This document shows, piece by piece, positions 12,449 to 25,400 of a DNA stretch of 64,000 bases. Made by a program: the position numbers and the translations under genes. How positions within the stretch are numbered: the stretch's first letter is position 1; every line of letters begins with the position of its first letter. Source of the stretch: Nilaparvata lugens (Eukaryota; Arthropoda; Insecta; Hemiptera; Delphacidae); the NCBI RefSeq assembly GCF_014356525.2, contig NC_052505.1, positions 25,193,432-25,257,431 of the forward strand, in the 5' to 3' direction. The notes under the pieces were generated by a model that was not told the DNA's origin, made no database searches, and saw only the letters and a program-made list of their open reading frames with translations.

Positions 12449-13410
12449 ATGATGAATGGAAAAACTAGTCCATTGTGTGTTTTTTGTGATAAAGAACTTC
12501 AGAGCGACGTGGTTGTCGTGGAAAAAGGATTGAAATTGATAATTGAGGTGAGTCTACAACTCAATGATGGTATTAATAATAAGTTGAATGGATTCACTAG
12601 TATCTCTGTTCATAAAACTTGCAGGCAGAGATATACTCATCCATCAAGGATTCAATCTGTATTAAGAGAGAAAGAAAAACATGTAAATAATCCTCCATTG
12701 TGTCCATTGAAATGTTTGGACAATGAATTTAATTTCAAAAATGATTGTTTCTTGTGTGAAAACCCAGCTATTTTCGATCCTAAAACTCCGCATTATCGTC
12801 GAAAATCTGTACATTTGGTTTCGACTTTAGAGATAAGAGATAATTTATTTAAAAAATGTGATGAACGGAATGATGATTGGGGTAGGAAAGTTAAAAGTAA
12901 ACTTCTTAATGTGACAGATCTTGTAGCACCCGAAGCTCGTTATCATAGAAATTGCTTTAACGATTTCTATAGAGGTTCTCAAGGTAGCAATAGTGTAGGG
13001 AGACCAAGTATCACTGGTGAGGGGTTCATCAAACTTTGTGAGTATATAGAAAAAAGTGATGAGTGTCAGTTTACTGTGGATGAGCTACAGGGTAAAATGA
13101 TTGAACTTTCCAATGGTAAGGAGAATTATTCTCAAAAATATTTCAGAGAAGTTCTGACAGATCACTTCAAGAATCGCCTGCATTTTTCAAAACTGGGGGA
13201 AAAGTGAACATATTGAGCTCTTCATATACAACAAAAGAAATAATTGAGAGAATTACTGGTGGTAAATACAGAGATCATGAAGAAGAACGAATGAGGATAG
13301 TTCTATCTGCAGCTGATATCATGAAGAAGATATTCAGAAAATGCAGTACGAGTCGAATCAGTATCCCAGTATGGAGGATATAAAATCTGGAGGCGAAAAT
13401 TTGATTCCTG
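12449..13410 (+). pseudogene. transposon protein, Cys-rich N-terminal region
   Basis: The ATG at 12449 (with GAAATG context at 12446) opens 252 codons. Cysteine motifs include CVFCDKEL near the start, VHKTCRQRYTHP, CFLCENPAIF, and ARYHRNCFNDFYRGSQG, spaced like a zinc-binding region. The C-terminal part has KLCEYIEKSDECQFTVDEL, a segment I know from the repeated protein family present in many invertebrate genomes. After a frame change near 13200 the protein sense continues (EEERMRIVLSAADIMKK) to a good donor, CCTG|GTATGT at 13411. It probably mediates DNA binding for the transposase downstream. Confidence 0.6.
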
Positions 13411-13687
13411 GTATGTACAAAAGTTTGATTTCATTTGTTCATTTTATTCATAAATAGTTAATTCTAATATTTTATTCACTATTTTTTATAACATTTTTCT
13501 GATAGTATTGCCCACATGAGCTATAGGCTGAATTTTTGAAAGTAATTTGAAGTTTTAATCCAATTCTGAGAATAATACTAAAGAATTTTACTGGAGAATA
13601 ATTTTTCATTTTATTTTTAGCCAAATATTTCTAACTCGAGTGTGTTTCAGTTATATAATACCAAATACATTGTTGGTCATGTTACAG
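13411..13687 (+). other. candidate intron in transposon gene
   Basis: Donor GTATGT at 13411 and acceptor TGTTACAG ending at 13687 enclose an AT-rich, stop-rich stretch. Coding sense appears on both sides. Confidence 0.5.
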
Positions 13688-15641
13688 GCAGTCTCAGAAC
13701 TTTTACAGCCAGACTTTTGTAAAAGAAAAAGACATCATGTGAGAAAACCATTTTAAGAAAATGTGCTGTATTGAACCACGCAATAGTTTCTTCCATAAGG
13801 CCAAGAACATTCATATCTCCAATTCTTATTGCTTTCGGACTGACTATTCACAGACTTTATGGATCGAAACATCTAATTGATTTACTGTCAGCAATGGGAG
13901 TCAGTGCATCGTATAATGAAGTTACGATTTATATGAACTCACTAATAAATGCAGGTTCACCAGAAATAAATAATGAAGCATTCATCCAGTACGTATTTGA
14001 CAATGCTGATGTCAATGTAAGGACATTGGATGGATTGAATACTTTTCATGCAATGGGTGGAATACAATGTATAACACCAATTTCTTGTATTGAAACTCAA
14101 GTGAAGGTGCAACGTTTCAAATCGGGAGCATTCAACTGCGAGACAATTCGAGAACTCTCCTATGCCAAGAGAAAATCCAAGAGTGGACTCTCAAAAATTT
14201 CAATCGAAGATGTAGGGTCATTTTTTCCTTCTGAATGTAATATTGAACTTGATTATCTCATGTTTCCAACTAATATTTTATGGCTAGCTGGATCAAGTAT
14301 TCAACCTGGGTAGAATGGCTTTATGACGTCTATGAAAAGTAAGGAAAGAAACTGTGAGACCACATACGTTTTAGGACTACCTTTCATCAATCTGAGCCCT
14401 AGCAATCCATCAACAATTTTCAGTGCACTCTCGTTTGCATCAGAACAATGCCGGAAAAGGAATAGCTCTTGTATAGTGACTTTTGATCAACCATTGTTTC
14501 TTAAGGCATCAGAAATTATAGCTTCTGCCGAACAAGATAGTGACTTGGCGAGGATTGCAGTAAGGCTTGGAGGTTTCCATCTATTGATGTCTTTTCTAGC
14601 ATCAATAGGGAAAATAATGGAGGGCAGTGGTTTGGAAGAGCTGTGGGCCACTGTGTATGGGCAATCCACAATTAATCACATGTTAAATGGACATTCTTAT
14701 GCAAGATGTGTGAGAGCTTATAATCTGACTGCCGCTGCTCTACTAAATGTAATGAAGGACAGTTTTCCAGATGTGAAAGAATTGCTCGATTCTTTAGAAA
14801 AAAATTCAACTTCTTAGAAATGAGAGGAGGAATCAGATATTCTTCAAGAAGCAGATGTCATTGAAGTCTTGAGGAAGGTGAATGAATGCTTCAATCACAT
14901 AAAATCCTTGAGCAGGACAACAAGGCTGTGGGTGAATCTTATGAAGTGCATCGATCTTATCATGAAATTCATTTTTGCTGAGCGTACAGGGAATTGGGAC
15001 TTGCATATAGCACTACTGTAGAGATGCTGCCATATTTTCATGCTGCAGGACATCTACCATATGCCAAGTCAGCTCAACTTTACGTTCAAAACATGACAAA
15101 AATAGAATCAAAACTTTCTACAACAGATTTAAGAATTTCAAAGAAAATGTTTTTTCACTGTTCGACGAAAAAAGGCATATTAGTCAGGAACATGGACCGA
15201 TATGTGCATAGAGCAGAATGTGATGCGACCAATGAAAGCTGTTGGTGGTCTCACTCATGGTAGGGGTATAACCAGCAGCACTCTCTCCAAATAGATTGTG
15301 GGTACACCCTACTTTCTCAAAGAACACGAGGCAATCGAAGACTTTCTCGGGACTTCTATACAATACAACGAGCAGCACGCAGAATTAAGAGAGTCGAGGA
15401 AGCTGATAGATTCACGAGATTTGAATAAATTCACAACTTGGCTGAATCAACAAAATCCATTTGCGCAGCTCTCCGGTGAACTTGTGTCATTGGCAACTGG
15501 TTTTGTTTGTGATGACTCGGTTAATTGTGATCAGGCTTATGAAATAGGGCTCAGAACTTTGAAGAGAATCGAAGGAAAAACTTTTGGAGAGCTCATATTG
15601 CACAGAAAGGACATGGTAAAAACCCAAAATGAATAAAAAAA
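13688..15641 (+). pseudogene. transposon protein, probable DDE-type transposase core
   Basis: Two long frames (13771-14313 and 14323-14817) and two shorter ones form one protein broken by frame changes. Recognisable blocks are SSIRPRTFISPILIAFGLTI, then YVFDNADVNVRTLDGLNTFH (candidate first catalytic Asp), YVLGLPFINLSPSNPSTIF, IVTFDQPLFLKASEI (candidate second Asp), RLGGFHLLMSFLASIGKIM, and YFHAAGHLPYAKSAQLYVQN. These occur in the same order in a repeated invertebrate protein family. I infer a transposase from the TIRs and acidic motifs; the third acidic residue was not identified. Breaks at 14313, 14817 and about 15250 make this copy non-functional. Confidence 0.6.
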
Positions 15642-17062
15642 GTGAAATGTCGATCTAAAGAAGTTTTTGTGAACTCACAACAGCTCTTTAATCGCATATT
15701 GTGTGTTTGTGACAGTCCAACAAAATTGAAAATGTATTTAGAATACGATCTCTCATCCCTCCCACCATCTATATTCGACGATTTCACGCTTCGGAAGGGC
15801 ACAAAATCCTCAGCAATGAAGATATTTGAGGAAGGTATTGTGATTGGAATGAGTTTCAATAATCCTTATTATGTTTTGGATGGAGGTCATCTGCTTCATC
15901 ATGTGATTTGGACAAAAAATTCAACGTATGGAGAAATCTTGAAAACTTATAACCGGTATGTGAATGAAAAATATGGTAGAAATGTTGTGATTGTTTTTGA
16001 CGGCTATCCTGATGAACCAACCACGAAAAATGAGGAGCAGAATCGAAGGTCAAAATCTTCATGCGATATCCGTTTCGAAAGAAACACAGTATCTGTCATT
16101 CCAAAGGAAAACTTTTTAGGAAACAAGAACAATAAGAAACGCTTTTCAGATTATCTGCAGTTGGAGCTACAAGAGCATGGTTTGAGAGTGGTCAAAGCGC
16201 TGGACGACGCCGATTTAGACATTGGAACAACAGCAATCAATGAAATCAGACCTGATTGTGAAGTAGTAGTTGTGAGCTCAGACACTGATGTCATTATGCT
16301 TCTAATTGCATTGGCCCCTGCTTCAGGAAGCAATATATTTTTCCAAAAAGAGAATGGTTCATCTGTAATGAATTATTCAATAGACACATTGATTGATAGA
16401 TTTAAAAATTCAAGGAAAGCTCTTCTTTTTGCTCACGCCGTGACTGGTTGTGATACCACATATTCATTTTTTTGTGTAGGTAAGCTGAGAGCAATGGAGA
16501 TGTTAAAATCAGCTGAAATACTCGAATCAACAGAGATTTTTCTGAGAGAAAATTCATTGAAGGAGGAATTGATTTTGGCAGGTGAGAAATTTGTTCTGAA
16601 ATTGTATAAATTGAACAAATTTCCCTCTCTGAATGAAGCTCGATACTACAAATTTCTGGCTCTTACTAAAAAGAGTTCATTGAAAAGTGACTTCAATCTT
16701 CCCAAGCTGCCACCAACCACAGAAGCTTGCCACCAGCACCTCTTGCGAGTATATTTACAAGTCCAAAGATGGTTGGAAATAGACTCTCTGCCACGGATTG
16801 GGGATGGAAAGTTGAGAACGTGAGGCAGCTTGGAATTAACAAGAAATCCTTAAAGCCAGTAGTTTCAATAAAACAATTTGTGCCCGAAGAGATTCTCCAT
16901 TAATGCTCTTGCGCTTGTAAAAATGAATGTGGCAAGCATTGTGGTTGCAGAAGAGCAGCCATGATTTGTACTGCTATGTGTGAAAATTGTAATGGACTCT
17001 CATGCTCGAATTCAGCAATCTGCCCTGAAGAAGAAAGTATGGATGCGTATTCAACAGCATAA
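15642..17062 (+). pseudogene. transposon protein, PIN/XPG-like domain and Cys-rich tail
   Basis: The 393-codon frame 15642-16823 carries acidic motifs resembling PIN/XPG-type nucleases: VIVFDGYPDEPTTK (Asp 120), the ALDDADLDIG cluster (Asp 188/189/191/193), VVSSDTDVIMLL (Asp 214/216) and AVTGCDTTYSFF (Asp 271). After a frame change near 16.8 kb the sense continues as CACKNECGKHCGCRRAA and CTAMCENCNGLSC, a CXC-like Cys-rich tail that ends at a TAA near 17060. Domain order suggests one long fusion with the transposase core, or a second protein of the same element. Catalysis is unproven; the likely role is in element excision or repair. Confidence 0.55.
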
Positions 17063-18209: not shown

Positions 18210-18413
18210 TGAAAAAACCTTTATTGACTGGACTATAAACATACTGAACATTATTATTTACACAGTCTTACAGTAGCGCTCGTAGAGTAAACATCTTAGT
18301 AGTTTAGTTTCACCGTAGTGATAGTTTTCAAAACAATCATCGTTCATCAATAAGTGGGTCACTGGAACATAACCATACAGCAGCTATCTTCATATGTCAT
18401 CGTCGTCGGATAG
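18210..18413 (+). promoter_or_regulatory. LINE leader, presumed 5' UTR and internal promoter
   Basis: About 200 bp of non-coding sequence lies between the transposon TIR and the ORF1 start codon. LINEs of this type normally have an internal promoter here. No specific motif was identified. Confidence 0.35.
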
Positions 18414-19682
18414 ATGAGGTCACCAACCAAACCACCGGATGGACTGATCCCGCAATTCGAGGAGGAGGAAGAAGAGGATAACTTTCCAGGGAACCAAGGA
18501 CTCAAAGTACGAGAACAACCAGATAAAATGGAAACTGTTGAACAATTATTGCTGAGTGAATTCAACACAGACATAATGAACATGAAGAGTATCTCTTCGG
18601 AATTCAAGGAATGGGCTTCGTCAGAATTTAAAAAAAAAACAAGGTTTCCAGAGCCGAATATGATAATTTCTTAGAATTAGTTCAAAAATTAGCATTGGTA
18701 ATCGTGAAAGTAGAAACGAGAGCAGTTACTATTAGCCAAATAAGTGATACTTTAGGGCATCCGAAAATTCATGACTCATTACAGGACATAAGCAAATCTG
18801 TTCAGGAAATTAAAAATAAAGACAGGCCTATTACTTACGCAGACATGATACAACTACCGAAAAAAGCTACTTCAAGCGATCCCCAGTCCAATAATCAAGT
18901 CAGGAAAATCCTTCCAAAAGAACAGGTAGTCTTAATTAAACCCTCAAATTCCACCGGTAATGAGAAACAAGACAGTGAAAAAATAAAAGGAACACTGAAA
19001 ACCAACATCGCGAGAAAGGATAACATTAAAATAAAAAGACAGTACCCGTTAGAGGAGGAGGTTTACTCATTGTTCTGGATTCTCTAGAGGACAAAAAGAA
19101 ATTATTGAAGAATAAAGCTGTAATAATGATCAAATCAAGATAACTGAGCCCCAAAATAAAAAACCCAGGATAATTGTTTATGATGTTCCATCTGATCTCA
19201 CTAACAAAGAGGTAACTGAAGAAATATATAACAAAAATTTTGTCAATTCAGGAATAGAAAAACAAAAATTTGAAGAAGGTTGCAAGCCATCATTCAAATT
19301 AGGGCCGAAAAACAAGGATTCCGTGCATTGGGTAGTAGAATGTGAACCCGAAATTAGGAAAGCAATAATTAATAAGAAAAAAATATTTATAGATATGACA
19401 TCATGTAGAGTTAATGATTACCATGCAGTGCAAAGGTGCTATAAATGTCAAGTCTATGGGCACATCACAAAACATTGTAAAAAGGAAGAAGATATCTGTG
19501 GTCATTGCTCCATCACAGGGCACAACATCAAAACCTGCCCTTCAATCGATAAACCTCCAGTATGTTTTAACTGCAAAAGAGCTGATAAACCCTCAGACCA
19601 CAAAGTAAACTATCTAAAGTGTCCCAGCTATGTGAAAGCATTGCAACAATCAATTGATCGAACAAATTATGGAAGTGCTTAA
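18414..19682 (+). pseudogene. LINE ORF1 with three zinc knuckles, frameshifted
   Basis: The ATG-like start near 18414 is followed by an acidic N-terminus (FEEEEEEDN). The reading sense then passes through changes of frame near 18630 (A-rich run), 19055 (GAGGAGGAGG run) and 19120-19135. The middle has GGLLIVLDSLEDKKKLL, then RIIVYDVPSDLTNKEVTEEI, a gag-like RNA-binding region. The C-terminus has three knuckles: CYKCQVYGHITKHC, CGHCSITGHNIKTC and a CFNCKRAD...H...C form. This layout is the usual nucleic-acid-binding ORF1 of jockey/I/R1-type LINEs. The three frame changes mean either decay or homopolymer sequencing errors. The stop TAA at 19680-19682 overlaps the next ORF. Confidence 0.75.
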
Positions 19683-21591
19683 AAAGATTAAAAATAGAAT
19701 TTCCAGCTCAAAATCATCAAATAAATTCACAGCATCAAATATAAAAATAGATATTCAAGATTTCCTATCATCTATTAAAAAAACAGAATTAATAAAACAG
19801 TCAGCGAAAAGTAGGACGTCTTTGATTTTCAGCTTTGGTCAATATACAGATTTTAATTTATCATTAGCTCGCTGGAATAAAAATTGTTTACGTATTTCAG
19901 AAGGCGTTGCACATTCAATCAAGAAGAAAACGCTGAGTCAAGATGAATACAATAGCTTACCTACTGTTTATTTACGGAACGTAAATAATAGCTCAATTCG
20001 TTTTCATCTTGTTAAAAATTCATTGACATTGATATTAGCGCAAAATAATAACAATGAGGCTCAATTAGGTATCCGTGACCTCTTACTGGTAATAGACGAA
20101 TATGCATCGATAAATAAATACAACATTACGATTGGAATAGATTCTTTTGATATTGACTCCGAGTTTACATGCTTGGACATTTTAAGTTTAGTAATTAAAA
20201 CTAAAAACCTGAATTATGTATTCTATTACAGAGGAATAAACAATCTAAAGTTCTTGGATATACCACATGAAAACGATGGCTCTGAAGATTGTCCAAAAGG
20301 ATACCTACCGTATGATTCTATTCTTTATGCTTATTTGAACAGTATGATAGAACTCAGGAACTTTATTCAACAGTATGATGTTCTGAATGCGGATTTATAT
20401 AGGGGAGTACTATCATCACTGAATAGTAATATCTCTTCTTCAGCAGCATGTATTCAAGAGATAAGGCGAAACGAGATGAACATCTACGACAATCGACTTA
20501 AGACTTTCCTGTGGCCGACATCCACTACATATCGAATGGGCTTCTGTTTAGAAAATGAAGGAAAATACGTACCCTACAATGAAACAACAAAGTCATTCTT
20601 AACTAAGGAAAAGTATATTCTAGTCAGTAGAGACACCCAAATCATGCTGAATGCTGAGCTGCTGAAGAATATTCTAAAAGTTGACATCACAAATTGTAAG
20701 ATGCCAAAAATAACTTGGATGGATGGAGTTCCAGGGTGTGGTAAAACTCACTTTATCCTTCAGCAACATACACCAGGTAAAGATCTCATTTTGTGTCAGA
20801 CAAGAGCTGGAATAAATGAAATTAGGCAAGAGGTGAATAGAATTCACAAAAATAAATATGAAAGAATAATTAAACAGGATTATAGAACAGTTTCATCTTT
20901 TATAATAAACGGATCAAAAAAGCAGTACAAACGTGTTTTCATAGATGAAGCAGTATTAATGCATGCAGGTTTCGTGGGATTTGTCTCATCTCTCGCTGGT
21001 GCTTCTGAGATTATTCTGCTAGGAGATTCAAACCAAATACCTTACATAGAGAGAAGTAAATTAACAGCTGAATGGTCACACATTTCATCTCTCTGTGAGA
21101 AGAGAATCCATCAAACAGTAACTAGAAGGTGTCCAATAGACGTCTGCTACATCCTTTCCAGCTACTACCAGGACATTGGTACGAAAAATGAGGTCCTGTT
21201 ATCCGTCAGACCTCCAATAACAAATGGAGAACTTGGACCACTTGAACCTAACACTCTGATTCTTACATTCACTCAGCTCGAGAAGAAAACAGTGCTAGAA
21301 GAGCTGCAATCAAAACTTCACCCTTCAGTTAAAGTCCATACAATTCATGAAGCACAGGGCTTAACTCACAAGAATGTAGTTCTGATAAGGAACAATAAAA
21401 AACAACTTGGAATATATAACAGCACACAACATGTAATAGTAGCAATGAGCAGACACACACAAACCTTCAGATATATCACAACAGGGCAAGAAGATTTAGT
21501 GCTGACCCTAATTCGAAAACTAAAGGATGTTAGTGAAGAGTTTCTCTTAAGCTGGAATGAAGAAACATGGAAGGGATTAATGAGAGTTTAA
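19669..21591 (+). CDS. SF1 viral-type RNA helicase ORF within a LINE
   Basis: An uninterrupted frame runs from the first ATG at 19669 (the open frame begins at 19636) to TAA at 21589-21591, about 640 codons. Residues below count from codon 19654. The C-terminal 290 residues carry the full motif set of superfamily-1 helicases of plus-strand RNA viruses: I GVPGCGKTH (358-366), Ia DLILCQTRAG, II IDEAV (Asp431, Glu432), III LLGDSNQIPY (455-464), IV-like RRCPIDVCY, V VHTIHEAQG (561-569) and VI VAMSRHT (596-602). Walker A Lys and Walker B Asp-Glu are intact, so ATPase activity is plausible. The first 340 residues match nothing I recognise. It overlaps the ORF1 end by 14 bases. Viral capture by insect LINEs has been reported; this placement before the endonuclease seems different. 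Confidence 0.85.
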   Translation: MEVLKKIKNRISSSKSSNKFTASNIKIDIQDFLSSIKKTELIKQSAKSRTSLIFSFGQYTDFNLSLARWNKNCLRISEGVAHSIKKKTLSQDEYNSLPTVYLRNVNNSSIRFHLVKNSLTLILAQNNNNEAQLGIRDLLLVIDEYASINKYNITIGIDSFDIDSEFTCLDILSLVIKTKNLNYVFYYRGINNLKFLDIPHENDGSEDCPKGYLPYDSILYAYLNSMIELRNFIQQYDVLNADLYRGVLSSLNSNISSSAACIQEIRRNEMNIYDNRLKTFLWPTSTTYRMGFCLENEGKYVPYNETTKSFLTKEKYILVSRDTQIMLNAELLKNILKVDITNCKMPKITWMDGVPGCGKTHFILQQHTPGKDLILCQTRAGINEIRQEVNRIHKNKYERIIKQDYRTVSSFIINGSKKQYKRVFIDEAVLMHAGFVGFVSSLAGASEIILLGDSNQIPYIERSKLTAEWSHISSLCEKRIHQTVTRRCPIDVCYILSSYYQDIGTKNEVLLSVRPPITNGELGPLEPNTLILTFTQLEKKTVLEELQSKLHPSVKVHTIHEAQGLTHKNVVLIRNNKKQLGIYNSTQHVIVAMSRHTQTFRYITTGQEDLVLTLIRKLKDVSEEFLLSWNEETWKGLMRV

Positions 21592-21594
21592 ATA

Positions 21595-24588
21595 ATGAGT
21601 AACAACAACTTATCAAATTTGCTCAGCTTCGAGGATCTTGATTATTTTGAAGAAATAAACGATGAAGTGATCAACAACAGTCAACAACTTTGTGCAGCAT
21701 TGAGTTCTTGTGATTTGAGCATCTTCTGTCTCAATATAAGGAGTATCAGAAGAAATTTTGATGAGCTGATGATTCAATTGTGCGACATTAATTTTTCTTT
21801 TGATGTTATTATTCTAACCGAATGCTGGATTAGGACTGAATTTGTACTCCAGTCCATTCGAGGATATGATGTATTTTCCACCATAAACAACCCATTACAA
21901 AATGATGGTGTAGTTGTTTATGTTAAAGATAGTATAAATGTACAATGTGTTGAGCTACATATTAACCAGGCAAATGTCCTACATATTCGGTTGGATGCAG
22001 CAGACAAAAAGTGGAACATCCTTGCAATATACAGATCACCGTCCTTCAATGATATTACAGATTTCCTGAGTGACTTAGAATCGATCCTGAATGAATTAAG
22101 AGGGCAACAAGTCATATGTGCCGGAGACATGAATATTAACACCCTTCAAATTCGTCCACATCATCAATTGAATGACTACTGCGATCTTCTAAGCGAGCAT
22201 GGGCTCAGACTCTGCATTAAGCAAGCAACCAGAACTACAACAGAAACTGCTTCTTGCATAGATCACATTGCTACCAACTCCAGAGATAATCTTTTTCCAA
22301 TCATTTATGAATCAACAATAACTGACCACTTCACCACAATTCTAGGAGTGCAACATATTTCGAGAAATAGTGCAAATGAAACTGGAACACATGAAATAAA
22401 CGAGAAAATAGACATTAATAGCTTGAAGAATGAACTACTGAATGAGGAGTGGATTCATGTTTTAGAAGATAATAATCCAGATACATCTTATGACACCTTC
22501 TTATCAACTCTGAGACAACATATACAAAATAATATCAAGCAGCATCGGCGGCAGAAGAAGTACAAACCCATCAAACCATGGATCACCAGAGGTATAGTAG
22601 CAGCAATAAGAACCAGAAATCTACTCAACAAAAGAAGAAAGGAAGACCCAACAACATTAACTTAACCAACTTCTATCGTCGGTATAGGAATACACTCACA
22701 GCTTTAATTCATGAAACAAAGGACCAATACTATAGAGAGAAATTGTATGAAGCTGGAAAGGATAATAAAAAAATGTGGAAAGTAATCAAAGATGCTACTG
22801 ACTCTAAATCAAAAACAAAAATGAAATTGAATGCTATTAAAATAGATGATAGGATTTTCAATCTAAAGGAAAATCCAGAAACTGTGCTCAACCACATGAA
22901 TAACTTTTTCACAAATGTAGGTGAAGAAATGGCGGAGACAATAATAGATTCCTTAAGAAAACCACTAGACCAAATCATATCCCAATATAAACCTGTTACA
23001 AGAACTCTACACTCCATCTACTTTCACCCAGTAACTGAAGATGAGCTTCTTGAAGCTATTAGTAGTTTGCGAAATGACAGTGCTCCAGGACTTGATGGAA
23101 TCAATAATAGAACATTGAAGTCGATAAAAAATGTAATTGTAAAACCATTAATTCACATATTTAATTTAAGTCTGTCAAAAGGAATTTTTCCAAAAGCTAT
23201 GAAAGAGACATGTGTTAGACCATTACATAAAGGAGGCGACAAAACAAATGCCACCAATTACAGGCCTATTTCACTTATAAGCAATATTTCTAAGATTTTG
23301 GAAAAACTGGTAAAGAAACGTCTTGTGAATTACATGGAAAAAAACAACTTACTATCTAGGAATCAATTTGGTTTTCGTGAGGGGAGGAGTACAGAAGATG
23401 CGGTATTAGAATTGTCAAATTTTGTCACAGATAAGCTAGAAAATAACAAAAAATGTGCAGCAGTGTTCCTGGACCTAGCAAAAGCTTTTGACACTGTTAA
23501 TCACAGTTTGCTGCTGAAGAAATTAGAAGCCATGGGAATTAGAGGAGTTCCTCTAGCATGGTTTAGATCATACCTCTGTGACCGGCGTCAAAAAGTCAAA
23601 GTTGAAGAACATCTCAGTTCAGAGGAACGATGAAGTTTGGGATTCCCCAAGGAACAGTTCTTGGGCCAATTCTGTATTTGGCATATGCAAATGAGCTATG
23701 TTCAATTAAGATAAGAGGAAGAGTAATAGCTTTTGCTGATGATACGTGTATACTATTTGAAGGAAACACCTGGGAGGAAGTTTTTAATCTGGCACAGGAA
23801 GAATTGATCAAAGTCGATAAATGGTTAAGAGAAAATTTGCTTACAGTAAATGCAACAAAAACGAAATTTTTAGCCTTTTCTCTGACAGAACGGACGAGAC
23901 CACCGGATTCTTCAATAATCCTGCATCACTGTGGAAGCACCAACAACCCGTGTGATTGCCCTTCAATTCAACAAGTCAATGAAATAAAATATTTAGGAAC
24001 AATAGTGGACAACAAATTCAAATGGGACAAGCACATTAATCTATCAATTACCCGGATCAGGAAGCTTCTCTACAAATTCTATCAACTCCGTAAAATCCTC
24101 AACTATGAGACATTAAAAACTGTTTATTTTTCTTTAGTGCAATCAATTTTAAGATACGTCATAATTATCTGGGGAGCTACGAATTTTACACATGTTGAAC
24201 CTCTCTATAAACTTCATAACGAATACTAAAAATAATAGGCTTCAAGGAGAATCAATTCCCCACGAACATTCTTTTCAAGGACAGTAAAGTACTGAGTGTA
24301 AGACAACTCTACATCCAGGCTATCATCACGCGAATGAGGAGAAACAACGAACACATAAGACTGGCAGATCATAACCATCAAACAAGGCAGAGAAACACGT
24401 ATTCAATAGTACCAAGGATGAACACTACATTTGGGCAAAGAAACTACACATATTTGGGACCAAAAATTTATAATTCAATACCAAGTTACATTAGGGAAGA
24501 ATTCAATAGACACAGGTTCAAGAAAAGTTTATTTTCCTGGTTGGTTGATATTGGAGTGGAAAATTGTGAAAATTTAGTTAGACTGTAA
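21595..24588 (+). pseudogene. LINE endonuclease-reverse transcriptase ORF, frameshifted
   Basis: ATG 21595 lies one codon after the helicase stop (TAA ATA ATG) in the same frame. The APE endonuclease shows CLNIRSIRRNFDEL, ILTECWI (catalytic Glu), IYRSPSF, CAGDMNIN, SCIDHIATN and ITDHFTT. A frame change near 22640 leads to the RT: NYRPISLISNISKILEK, NQFGFREGRSTEDAVLEL, FLDLAKAFDTVNH, then after a change near 23625 GIPQGTVLGPILYL and the catalytic AFADDTCI (FADD box). The thumb region follows (YLGTIVDNKFKWDKHI, QSILRYVIIIWG). A last break near 24229 precedes NTTFGQRNYTYLGPKIYNSI. The enzyme would perform target-primed reverse transcription. Three breaks make this copy defective unless they are assembly errors. 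Confidence 0.85.
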
Positions 24589-25095
24589 ATATTGAAACTA
24601 TTTATTCTTCATTCCACTCTTTACTGTTTTTCATTTTTCTAAAAATAACCTTTCTTATTATTATCCTTAATAGAACATTAATATTTATTTACTAATTCCA
24701 TAATTTTGTTTGTTTGTATTATACATTTTTACTAATTTTATTATAAAAAACTTTAATCCCATATCAGTGAATGAAGTTTGTAAATAGTAATTATTACACG
24801 CAATAAGCAACTAATTACTTATACCCCAACACATATAATATATAGTGGGGTGTATATTTATTCATTGAAATTATCATTTATTCATTGTTGAAACACCGCT
24901 GATTTATGTAGTTATATTACAATACTATATTATCAATATTCTAATGTTGCATTCAATCTTCATTGTAATTAATAAGTTTTCATAATATGTGAAATTTGTT
25001 GCATAATTGGCTGTTGTACTGTAATTTATTGTAGATTCGTGTATGAACCAGAATGTATTGTAACTTACTTGAATAAATAAATACAACAATAATTT
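24589..25095 (+). other. LINE 3' untranslated region
   Basis: AT-rich sequence after the RT stop. It ends around TTGAATAAATAAATACAACAAT, which contains polyadenylation-like AATAAA words and probably marks the 3' terminus. Confidence 0.5.
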
Positions 25096-25124
25096 ATATT
25101 CATAGTTGTTCATTTGAGTGACAA

Positions 25125-25272
25125 GGTCCCGGTTGCAGAAAAGCCGGTTAAATTTCAACCGTGATTAATTTCACGAGACTCAATCAAGAATGGTTTTATG
25201 AAAAGACGGCTTCTTATTGTTTATCTTGGAATTATTCATGGTTAAAATTTAATCGGCTTTTGTGCAACCGAC
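25125..25272. mobile_element. palindromic MITE, GGTTGCAC family, copy A
   Basis: A near-perfect inverted structure. The left arm has CCGGTTGCAGAAAAGCCGG, then TTAAATTTCAACCGTGATTA; the right arm ends in AATCGGCTTTTGTGCAACCG. Related copies lie at 25320, 44733 and 49245. Confidence 0.75.
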
Positions 25273-25317
25273 ACTAGGTGTTTCTATAGATGATCCCACT
25301 GCAACACATACTTTGAC

Positions 25318-25400
25318 TAGGGCCCAGTTGCACAAAAGCCGGTTAGATTTTAACCGTGATTAATTTCATGAGACTCAATCAGAGAAGGGTTTTATCTAGC
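25318..25400. mobile_element. GGTTGCAC-family MITE, half copy B
   Basis: The left arm only: CCCAGTTGCACAAAAGCCGG, then TTAGATTTTAACCGTGATTA and CAATCAGAGAAG. It breaks off at about 25400, where the GTTATACG array begins. Confidence 0.7.

What the first reader, a model, noticed from the sequence alone, without database searches (positions are those of the whole stretch)
19669..21591. A virus-type SF1 RNA helicase ORF sits between ORF1 and the endonuclease-RT of a LINE
The ORF has all SF1 helicase motifs (Walker A Lys364, Asp431-Glu432, motifs III, V and VI) and is flanked on the same strand by a zinc-knuckle ORF1 and an APE-RT ORF. Motif wording is closest to alphavirus-like (virga/tobamo/beny-type) replicase helicases. 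From memory, a 2015 report described tobamovirus-like helicase domains at the C-terminus of R1 LINE ORF2 in insects. Here it is placed before the endonuclease, as part of a third ORF, so it may be an independent capture or an undescribed lineage. A helicase could unwind the RNA template or counter RNA silencing.
Basis: partly seen in the sequence, partly recalled or inferred. Interest (0 to 1): 0.92.

Follow-up and report, generated by a model that had tools for sequence, protein, structure and literature searches.

The report
Planthopper LINE carrying viral helicase gene
A jumping gene in what is almost certainly the brown planthopper carries its own copy of an RNA-virus helicase as a separate middle gene; such elements were reported in this insect in 2017, so the finding is real but not new, though its three-gene layout and its apparently separate origin from a leafhopper version add detail.

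Summary
Window 19669-21591 (+) encodes a full virus-type SF1 helicase (Pfam Viral_helicase1, E 3e-41) inside a LINE spanning 18263-25081. It is not a chance integration: 20 further copies, 97.7-99.8% identical, carry it. The genome holds at least 163 helicase places, and five lineages (39-51% helicase identity) keep the order ORF1 - helicase - endonuclease/RT. Adjacent ORFs overlap by 14 or 11 nt and by 8 nt, suggesting coupled translation. Trees of the three ORFs share one deep split.

Morozov et al. 2017 (PMC5563155) already described helicase ORFs very close to or overlapping ORF2 of Jockey-like LINEs there, so the headline is known.

What I add: a stand-alone middle gene behind a separate zinc-knuckle ORF1; a conserved N-terminal region of unknown family; and a helicase clade separate from a Homalodisca-type PHD-ORF1-helicase fusion (AU p 0.005, groups named after seeing the tree), suggesting two captures. 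Function is unproven; I favour an RNA helicase of the LINE ribonucleoprotein. Against it, recently diverged copies show weak constraint on the helicase.

The parts
18263..25081 (+). full LINE element; of 20 fetched copies 14 share the 5' end (within 6 nt) and 16 the 3' end (within 13 nt)
   Evidence: blastn against 20 copies, 97.7-99.8% identity over the long matches
18263..18413 (+). 5' leader of the element
   Evidence: shared 5' end to the first ATG of ORF1
18414..19682 (+). ORF1, zinc-knuckle (gag-like); broken here into frames 18414-18674, 18632-19087 and 19116-19682; one 422-aa frame in 10 of 21 copies
   Evidence: CCHC motifs by eye; no Pfam family over its cut-off
19669..19682 (+). 14-nt overlap of helicase ATG with ORF1 stop (14 nt also in A, A2, D, D2; 11 nt in C and F2)
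19669..21591 (+). stand-alone SF1 helicase ORF, 640 aa here (644 aa in 11 of the 13 copies with a complete frame)
   Evidence: PF01443 E 3.4e-41; 19 relatives covering 91-99% of it at 34-49% identity
19786..20313 (+). conserved N-terminal region of the helicase protein (about residues 40-215), no named family found; model confidence 63-85 per ten residues, 50 at residues 201-210
   Evidence: alignment A1, AlphaFold model, Pfam scan
20314..20673 (+). pre-helicase accessory region (about residues 216-335), aligned in a single-sequence search with the part of the tobamovirus chain before its helicase core
   Evidence: match to 3wrx from residue 230 of a query that begins at 19639, that is about 220 from the ATG; the profile search covers only 341-620
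20719..21480 (+). SF1 helicase core (Viral_helicase1)
21595..24588 (+). ORF2: endonuclease (21595-22665), RT (22533-23633 and 23606-24229), C-terminal part (24220-24588); one open 995-999 aa frame in 8 of 21 copies
   Evidence: PF14529, PF03372 and PF00078
24589..25081 (+). 3' untranslated region; many copies continue into an (ATTTGA)n-type tail (read by eye), absent in the window copy

Best explanation
A recently active non-LTR retrotransposon, very probably of N. lugens, with three genes on one RNA: ORF1 (zinc-knuckle RNA-binding protein), a stand-alone SF1 RNA helicase of RNA-virus origin, and ORF2 (endonuclease-RT). Shown: gene order, multicopy state, near-identical copies, open frames, helicase motifs, conserved stop/start overlaps, and one deep split shared by the three ORFs. 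Inferred: (1) the helicase and ORF2 are made by termination-reinitiation at the overlaps; (2) the helicase was captured once in this LINE lineage, before its five lineages here split, together with or followed by gain of its N-terminal region; (3) it acts in the LINE ribonucleoprotein, opening structured or double-stranded LINE RNA so that it can be translated and reverse-transcribed and is a poorer substrate for Dicer. I put the anatomy at 0.95, the single old capture at 0.8, coupled translation at 0.7, and the RNP-helicase role over a pure silencing suppressor or a passenger at about 0.45.
For: Helicase family and solved relatives. 150 of 150 scored places (807 first-look candidates) pass the cut-off; a second query lists 39, 13 of them new (compared by eye). 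20 copies at 97.7-99.8% identity with shared ends. Five lineages with ORF1-HEL-ORF2 in order. Identity between lineages: HEL 39-51%, first 460 residues of ORF2 27-53%, ORF1 32-53% (partial ORF1 frames in B and C); HEL and ORF2 identities correlate, r 0.84 over 10 non-independent pairs. Split A,B,D | C,F supported 100/100 (HEL), 100/100 (ORF2 part), 99/99 (ORF1). HEL/ORF2 overlap 8 nt in 7 of 9 sequences and in all five lineages (in B by the third of three ATGs); the two exceptions have a shortened helicase frame. ORF1/HEL overlap 14 or 11 nt in 7 of 7 sequences with a readable junction (in D by the second ATG). Deep pairs dN 0.43-0.55 with dS over 2 in the 2 of 6 pairs where it is defined (lineages A-D only).
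Against: Recently diverged pairs give helicase dN/dS of 0.97, 0.45, 0.78 and 1.01, against 0.31, 0.32, 0.09 and 0.25 for ORF2: few changes, but no sign of strong present constraint on the helicase. Minor letters per letter in 21 A copies: HEL 0.0018, ORF2 0.0012, ORF1 0.0023, 3' UTR 0.0057. No target-site duplication in any of 21 copies, 13 of them with both ends, which is unusual for a LINE (recalled). One of eight copies of other lineages, L036, gave no ORF1 match in the stretch fetched. No expression, enzyme or translation data here. The copies were picked by helicase score, so helicase-free relatives would be missed. Inside A, B, D the branching is weak or differs between ORFs (57/37, 89/89, 52/56).
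Confidence: 0.6

Rival explanations
1. The helicase is mainly a silencing suppressor: it unwinds or sequesters LINE double-stranded or small RNA and so blocks siRNA/piRNA control, with no direct part in reverse transcription.
For: Proposed by Lazareva 2015 and Morozov 2017; a Plutella LINE helicase moderately promoted movement of a suppressor-deficient plant virus, which the authors call preliminary (PMC4686597 section 6; PMC5563155 section 10).
Against: That test used a Lepidoptera helicase in plants; nothing here tests it. The conserved stop/start overlaps with ORF1 and ORF2 fit a structural partner equally well.
Confidence: 0.3
2. A chance viral integration in one LINE copy, as in the reader's refutation.
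For: The helicase is plainly of viral type.
Against: At least 163 places, shared element ends, five lineages with the same order.
Confidence: 0.01
3. A passenger: the captured gene is tolerated and amplified with the LINE but gives little benefit now; only ORF1 and ORF2 are needed.
For: Helicase dN/dS near 1 in two of four young pairs and 0.78 in a third. The review PMC6338049, by the same authors as the 2017 paper (section 1, part 1 of 4 read), calls the function only accessory.
Against: Conservation at 39-51% identity over the whole protein in five lineages, and 19 relatives of similar length.
Confidence: 0.2
4. One capture by an ancestor of both this LINE and the Homalodisca-type PHD-ORF1-helicase LINE.
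For: Both are LINE-borne; Morozov 2017 treats the Hemiptera and Orthoptera cases as Jockey-family elements on a branch apart from TRAS (abstract).
Against: The Homalodisca-type helicases sit with RNA viruses at 99/96 and 99/97; forcing one clade costs 29.2 log-likelihood units, p-AU 0.0048, with the groups named after the first tree. ORF1 type also differs: zinc knuckle against PHD-like.
Confidence: 0.15

Closest known systems
SF1H-encoding Jockey-like LINEs of Nilaparvata lugens (Morozov, Lazareva and Solovyev 2017, PMC5563155)
   Same: Very probably the same species and the same kind of element: helicase ORF very close to or overlapping ORF2 (EN-RT), dozens of sequences, full motif set.
   Different: That paper calls the helicase ORF 'ORF1' and gives a 2-nt overlap with ORF2 in one contig; here a separate zinc-knuckle ORF1 precedes it and overlaps are 14/11 and 8 nt. 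Its contigs were not compared here, and Figure 4 was not seen, only its legend.
TRAS (R1 clade) LINEs of Lepidoptera with C-terminal helicase (Lazareva 2015, PMC4686597; abstract and section 6 read)
   Same: Virus-type SF1 helicase carried by an insect LINE.
   Different: There it is fused to the C-terminus of ORF2; here it is a free-standing ORF before ORF2. No confirmed TRAS helicase entered my trees.
PHD-ORF1-helicase fusion LINEs of Homalodisca vitripennis and unnamed sources (P0024, P0030, P0039, P0040, P0028)
   Same: Helicase upstream of an endonuclease in a hemipteran LINE (endonuclease in P0040 under Pfam's cut-off, in P0028 read by eye).
   Different: Helicase fused behind a PHD-like or PWWP, coiled-coil ORF1; separate clade grouped with RNA viruses. 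Not shown to be the same elements as Morozov's Homalodisca ones.
Tobamovirus replicase helicase (ToMV, 3vkw/3wrx) and invertebrate virga-like replicases
   Same: Helicase core aligns, and in one search part of the region before it.
   Different: No methyltransferase or RdRp attached; own N-terminal region of about 200 residues.
SART1 stop-start translational coupling (Kojima 2005, seen only as a mention and reference entry in PMC5563155)
   Same: Stop and start codons of neighbouring LINE ORFs touch or overlap.
   Different: Here two such junctions in a three-gene element, with 14/11- and 8-nt overlaps.

Membership tests
Viral superfamily 1 helicase (PF01443) | profile match over the curated cut-off, with conserved motifs | tested here: met
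   142 bits against 21, profile positions 3-228 of 228; Walker A and DE columns invariant in 20 sequences. The cut-off also passes in 9 of 14 prokaryote controls, so virus type rests.
Non-LTR retrotransposon (LINE) | APE-type endonuclease and RT in ORF2 | tested here: met
   PF14529, PF03372 and PF00078 over cut-off in the window frames; in an open copy RT E 1.3e-39, while both endonuclease families fall just under their cut-offs
Non-LTR retrotransposon (LINE) | multicopy, shared 3' end, 5' truncation | tested here: met
   16 of 20 copies share the 3' end; truncated copies L037, L038, L039
Non-LTR retrotransposon (LINE) | target-site duplication | tested here: not met
   0 of 21 copies exceed the maximum of 30 shuffles, 13 of them with both ends; common but not obligatory in LINEs (recalled)
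Jockey clade | RT phylogeny within Jockey | not tested
   taken from Morozov 2017; no RT tree was made here
SF1H Jockey-like LINE of N. lugens (Morozov 2017) | helicase ORF directly upstream of or overlapping ORF2 | tested here: met
SF1H Jockey-like LINE of N. lugens (Morozov 2017) | host is N. lugens | tested here: inconclusive
   1,085,386,871 bases and a 77,631,935-base contig against 1087 Mb and scaffold N50 77.63 Mb quoted in PMC11507613; no named record compared
TRAS-SF1H LINE | helicase at the C-terminus of ORF2 | tested here: not met
   the helicase is a separate ORF upstream

The most novel reading that the evidence does not exclude
A LINE lineage with a true third gene: a viral helicase kept as an independent, translationally coupled middle cistron, with an N-terminal region of unknown family, captured independently of the PHD-ORF1-helicase LINEs of leafhoppers and (per Morozov 2017) of the TRAS helicases. 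Insect LINEs would then have recruited the same virus enzyme at least three times in three gene positions, which points to a recurrent benefit.
Probability: 0.55. Interest if true: 0.6.

Novelty: already known. Interest (0 to 1): 0.38.

Why it matters
Repeated capture of one virus enzyme by different LINEs makes it testable whether LINEs gain from a helicase of their own in RNA handling or in escaping small-RNA control. The three-gene layout with conserved overlaps also offers a natural test of coupled translation of three genes on one insect RNA. The existence of helicase-bearing LINEs in N. lugens was already in print in 2017 (PMC5563155).

Tried and rejected
Chance integration: rejected. 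Helicase-free sister copies: an RT DNA query gave 40 copies at about 100% identity (40 of 245 candidates scored); 15 had no listed helicase 1-3.5 kb upstream; three of these 15 were read and are 5'-truncated, one also with an internal deletion. The matching ORF1 query did not complete, so copies with ORF1 and ORF2 but no helicase are not excluded. A lower dS in the helicase than in its neighbours was followed with 21 aligned A copies plus L033 and did not hold up. IMG/VR gave no relative: 15 pattern matches, none confirmed. Target-site duplications: none. The fold of the N-terminal region could not be searched (fold search busy). In the Pfam scan of 20 members no family outside the helicase/P-loop groups is listed for more than one member (25 of 29 families shown; best single one E 3.4e-4, place not shown). 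A profile of residues 40-215 gave one weak match, E 3.3e-5 in a 54-sequence set with filters off, inside the helicase core of a tobamovirus protein, left unexplained. Tree rows dropped for short coverage: P0023, P0036, P0038, P0042, P0046, P0047 (6 of 54); P0021 and P0048 were also dropped as long branches; P0046 was put back. The ORF context of P0001-P0019 was not seen, so the three-ORF layout is shown only for the five lineages of the window's own genome.
Full report
What is there. The frame at window 19636-21591 (+), with its first ATG at 19669, encodes a 640-residue protein whose residues 351-604 match Pfam Viral_helicase1 (positions 3-228 of 228, E about 3e-41). The family's cut-off alone is not virus-specific: it is also passed in 9 of 14 prokaryote control genomes. 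Among solved structures the four matches up to E 10 are all virus chains: the tomato mosaic virus replicase helicase at about 1e-38 over residues 230-636 of a query that starts ten codons before the ATG, and nsP2-type helicases at about 1e-17. A profile of 20 relatives ranks the same chains first but covers only positions 341-620 in the best one.

The element. Twenty further copies, the first 20 of 150 rows in a helicase search of the window's own genome, match the window at 97.7-99.8% over up to 6.8 kb. Fourteen of 20 share the 5' end at window 18263 within 6 nt and 16 of 20 the 3' end near 25081 within 13 nt, where many continue into an (ATTTGA)n-type tail (tails read by eye). No target-site duplication exceeded the maximum of 30 shuffles in any of 21 copies, 13 of which have both ends. 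In 21 copies, the window's included, a 422-aa ORF1 is open in 10, a helicase frame of 651-655 aa in 13, and an ORF2 of 995-999 aa in 8; copies with all three open exist. The window copy has ORF1 and ORF2 broken into several frames.

Copy number and lineages. All 150 scored candidates (of 807 in the first look) pass the family cut-off; a different helicase query listed 39 places, of which 13 are new (compared by eye), so at least 163. I fetched six copies of other types and two more. With A they fall into five lineages, here A, B, C, D and F. L033 is a close sister of A (98.8% in DNA) and L034 a copy of C. In seven of these eight copies ORF1, helicase and ORF2 matches follow each other in that order; the eighth, L036, gave no ORF1 match in its stretch. 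Between lineages the helicase is 39-51% identical, the first 460 residues of ORF2 27-53% and ORF1 32-53% (partial frames in B and C); helicase and ORF2 identities correlate (r 0.84 over 10 non-independent pairs). Trees of the three ORFs all support the split A,B,D against C,F (100/100, 100/100, 99/99), while the order inside A,B,D is weak. The simplest reading is that the helicase was present before these lineages split and has been inherited with the LINE.

Gene junctions. In all five lineages the helicase stop overlaps an ORF2 ATG by 8 nt (7 of 9 sequences; in B it is the third of three ATGs; the window and L033 have shortened helicase frames), and the ORF1 stop overlaps a helicase ATG by 14 nt (A, A2, D, D2, window; in D the second ATG) or 11 nt (C, F2), in 7 of 7 sequences with a readable junction. 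Conserved overlap with changing sequence suggests termination-reinitiation. Stop-start coupling is known from SART1 (Kojima 2005, seen only as cited in PMC5563155). That these junctions are used so is inferred.

Selection. Deep pairs among A, B, C and D have dN 0.43-0.55; dS is undefined in four of six pairs and 2.1 and 4.0 in the others, so long-term constraint is likely. Among recently diverged pairs the helicase ratio is 0.97, 0.45, 0.78 and 1.01, against 0.31, 0.32, 0.09 and 0.25 for ORF2. These rest on few changes and include mutations after insertion, but they speak against strong present-day selection on the helicase and keep the passenger reading alive. Minor letters per letter in 21 A copies are 0.0018 (helicase), 0.0012 (ORF2), 0.0023 (ORF1) and 0.0057 (3' UTR).

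Relatives. A protein search found 19 proteins of 637-754 aa, none with an organism name, that cover 91-99% of the helicase protein at 34-49% identity, so the N-terminal part belongs to the protein. P0001 is nearly identical to lineage D and may come from the same species. The AlphaFold model of the whole protein has mean pLDDT 80.8. For residues 40-215 no Pfam family was found in the window's protein, and none outside the helicase/P-loop groups is listed for more than one of 20 members (25 of 29 families shown). Fold search could not be run.

Other LINE helicases. Two further searches brought RNA-virus helicases and a second LINE type from Homalodisca vitripennis and unnamed sources, in which the helicase follows a PHD-like or PWWP, coiled-coil ORF1 in one frame (P0024, P0030, P0039, P0040; PHD in P0024 and endonuclease in P0040 are under Pfam's cut-offs, and the PHD-like start of P0030 and P0040 and the endonuclease-like tail of P0028 were read by eye). 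In a 48-row helicase tree the window type forms one clade of 25 rows (100/99), while the Homalodisca type groups with P0027, P0033 (Pemphredonvirus) and P0034 (99/96). Without two long branches the picture holds, and holding the two LINE types together is rejected (p-AU 0.0048; the groups were named after the first tree); adding the butterfly protein P0041 to them is rejected far more strongly (2.4e-69). With P0046 added, the window-type clade plus P0046 is 99/98. The position of tobamovirus-type helicases next to it is weak (72/39 and 72/32), so I do not name a donor. No confirmed TRAS helicase was in the set.

Organism and print. The genome has 1,085,386,871 bases in 6870 contigs, one of them 77,631,935 bases long; a review quotes 1087 Mb and scaffold N50 77.63 Mb for a brown planthopper assembly (PMC11507613, passages only). 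For N. lugens, Morozov et al. 2017 (PMC5563155: abstract and outline, Results parts 1-2 of 3, section 10 and search passages seen; figures not seen) report dozens of sequences with the helicase ORF very close to or overlapping ORF2 of Jockey-superfamily LINEs, with the example AOSB01072940. They call the helicase ORF ORF1, and the passages found for zinc, CCHC, gag and upstream mention no separate ORF1 before it. Of PMC4686597 I saw the abstract and section 6, of PMC6338049 section 1 part 1 of 4. Nine paper searches listed no title or abstract start that describes the three-ORF layout; the library lacks most subscription papers.

Verdict. What remains as addition is the separate middle cistron with conserved overlaps, the depth of the lineage within one genome, the unnamed N-terminal region, and the evidence for a capture independent of the Homalodisca type.

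Noticed in passing
window 12449-16823 (+): A run of same-strand frames (252, 180, 164 and 393 aa); the first and last were scanned and have no Pfam family over its cut-off.
   Followed up: partly
window 25119-25392: A 79-nt direct repeat (85% identical) with an overlapping 57-nt inverted repeat (82% complementary), just downstream of the LINE's 3' end.
   Followed up: no
proteins P0024, P0030, P0039, P0040: A second helicase-bearing LINE type with a PHD-like or PWWP N-terminal domain fused to the helicase; P0031 from Homalodisca is annotated as a cadherin-type receptor, probably a gene model fused with such an element.
   Followed up: partly
protein P0046: A diverged relative of the window-type helicase whose motif II reads HD rather than DE (by eye); groups with P0019 at 82/67.
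   Followed up: partly
protein P0041, Pararge aegeria: A butterfly protein whose helicase pairs with that of P0026, a helicase-RdRp protein (100/99); no RT domain found in it, so an endogenous viral element or another capture.
   Followed up: no
copies L009-L028: Young copies lack detectable target-site duplications, and many end in (ATTTGA)n-type tails of varying length.
   Followed up: partly
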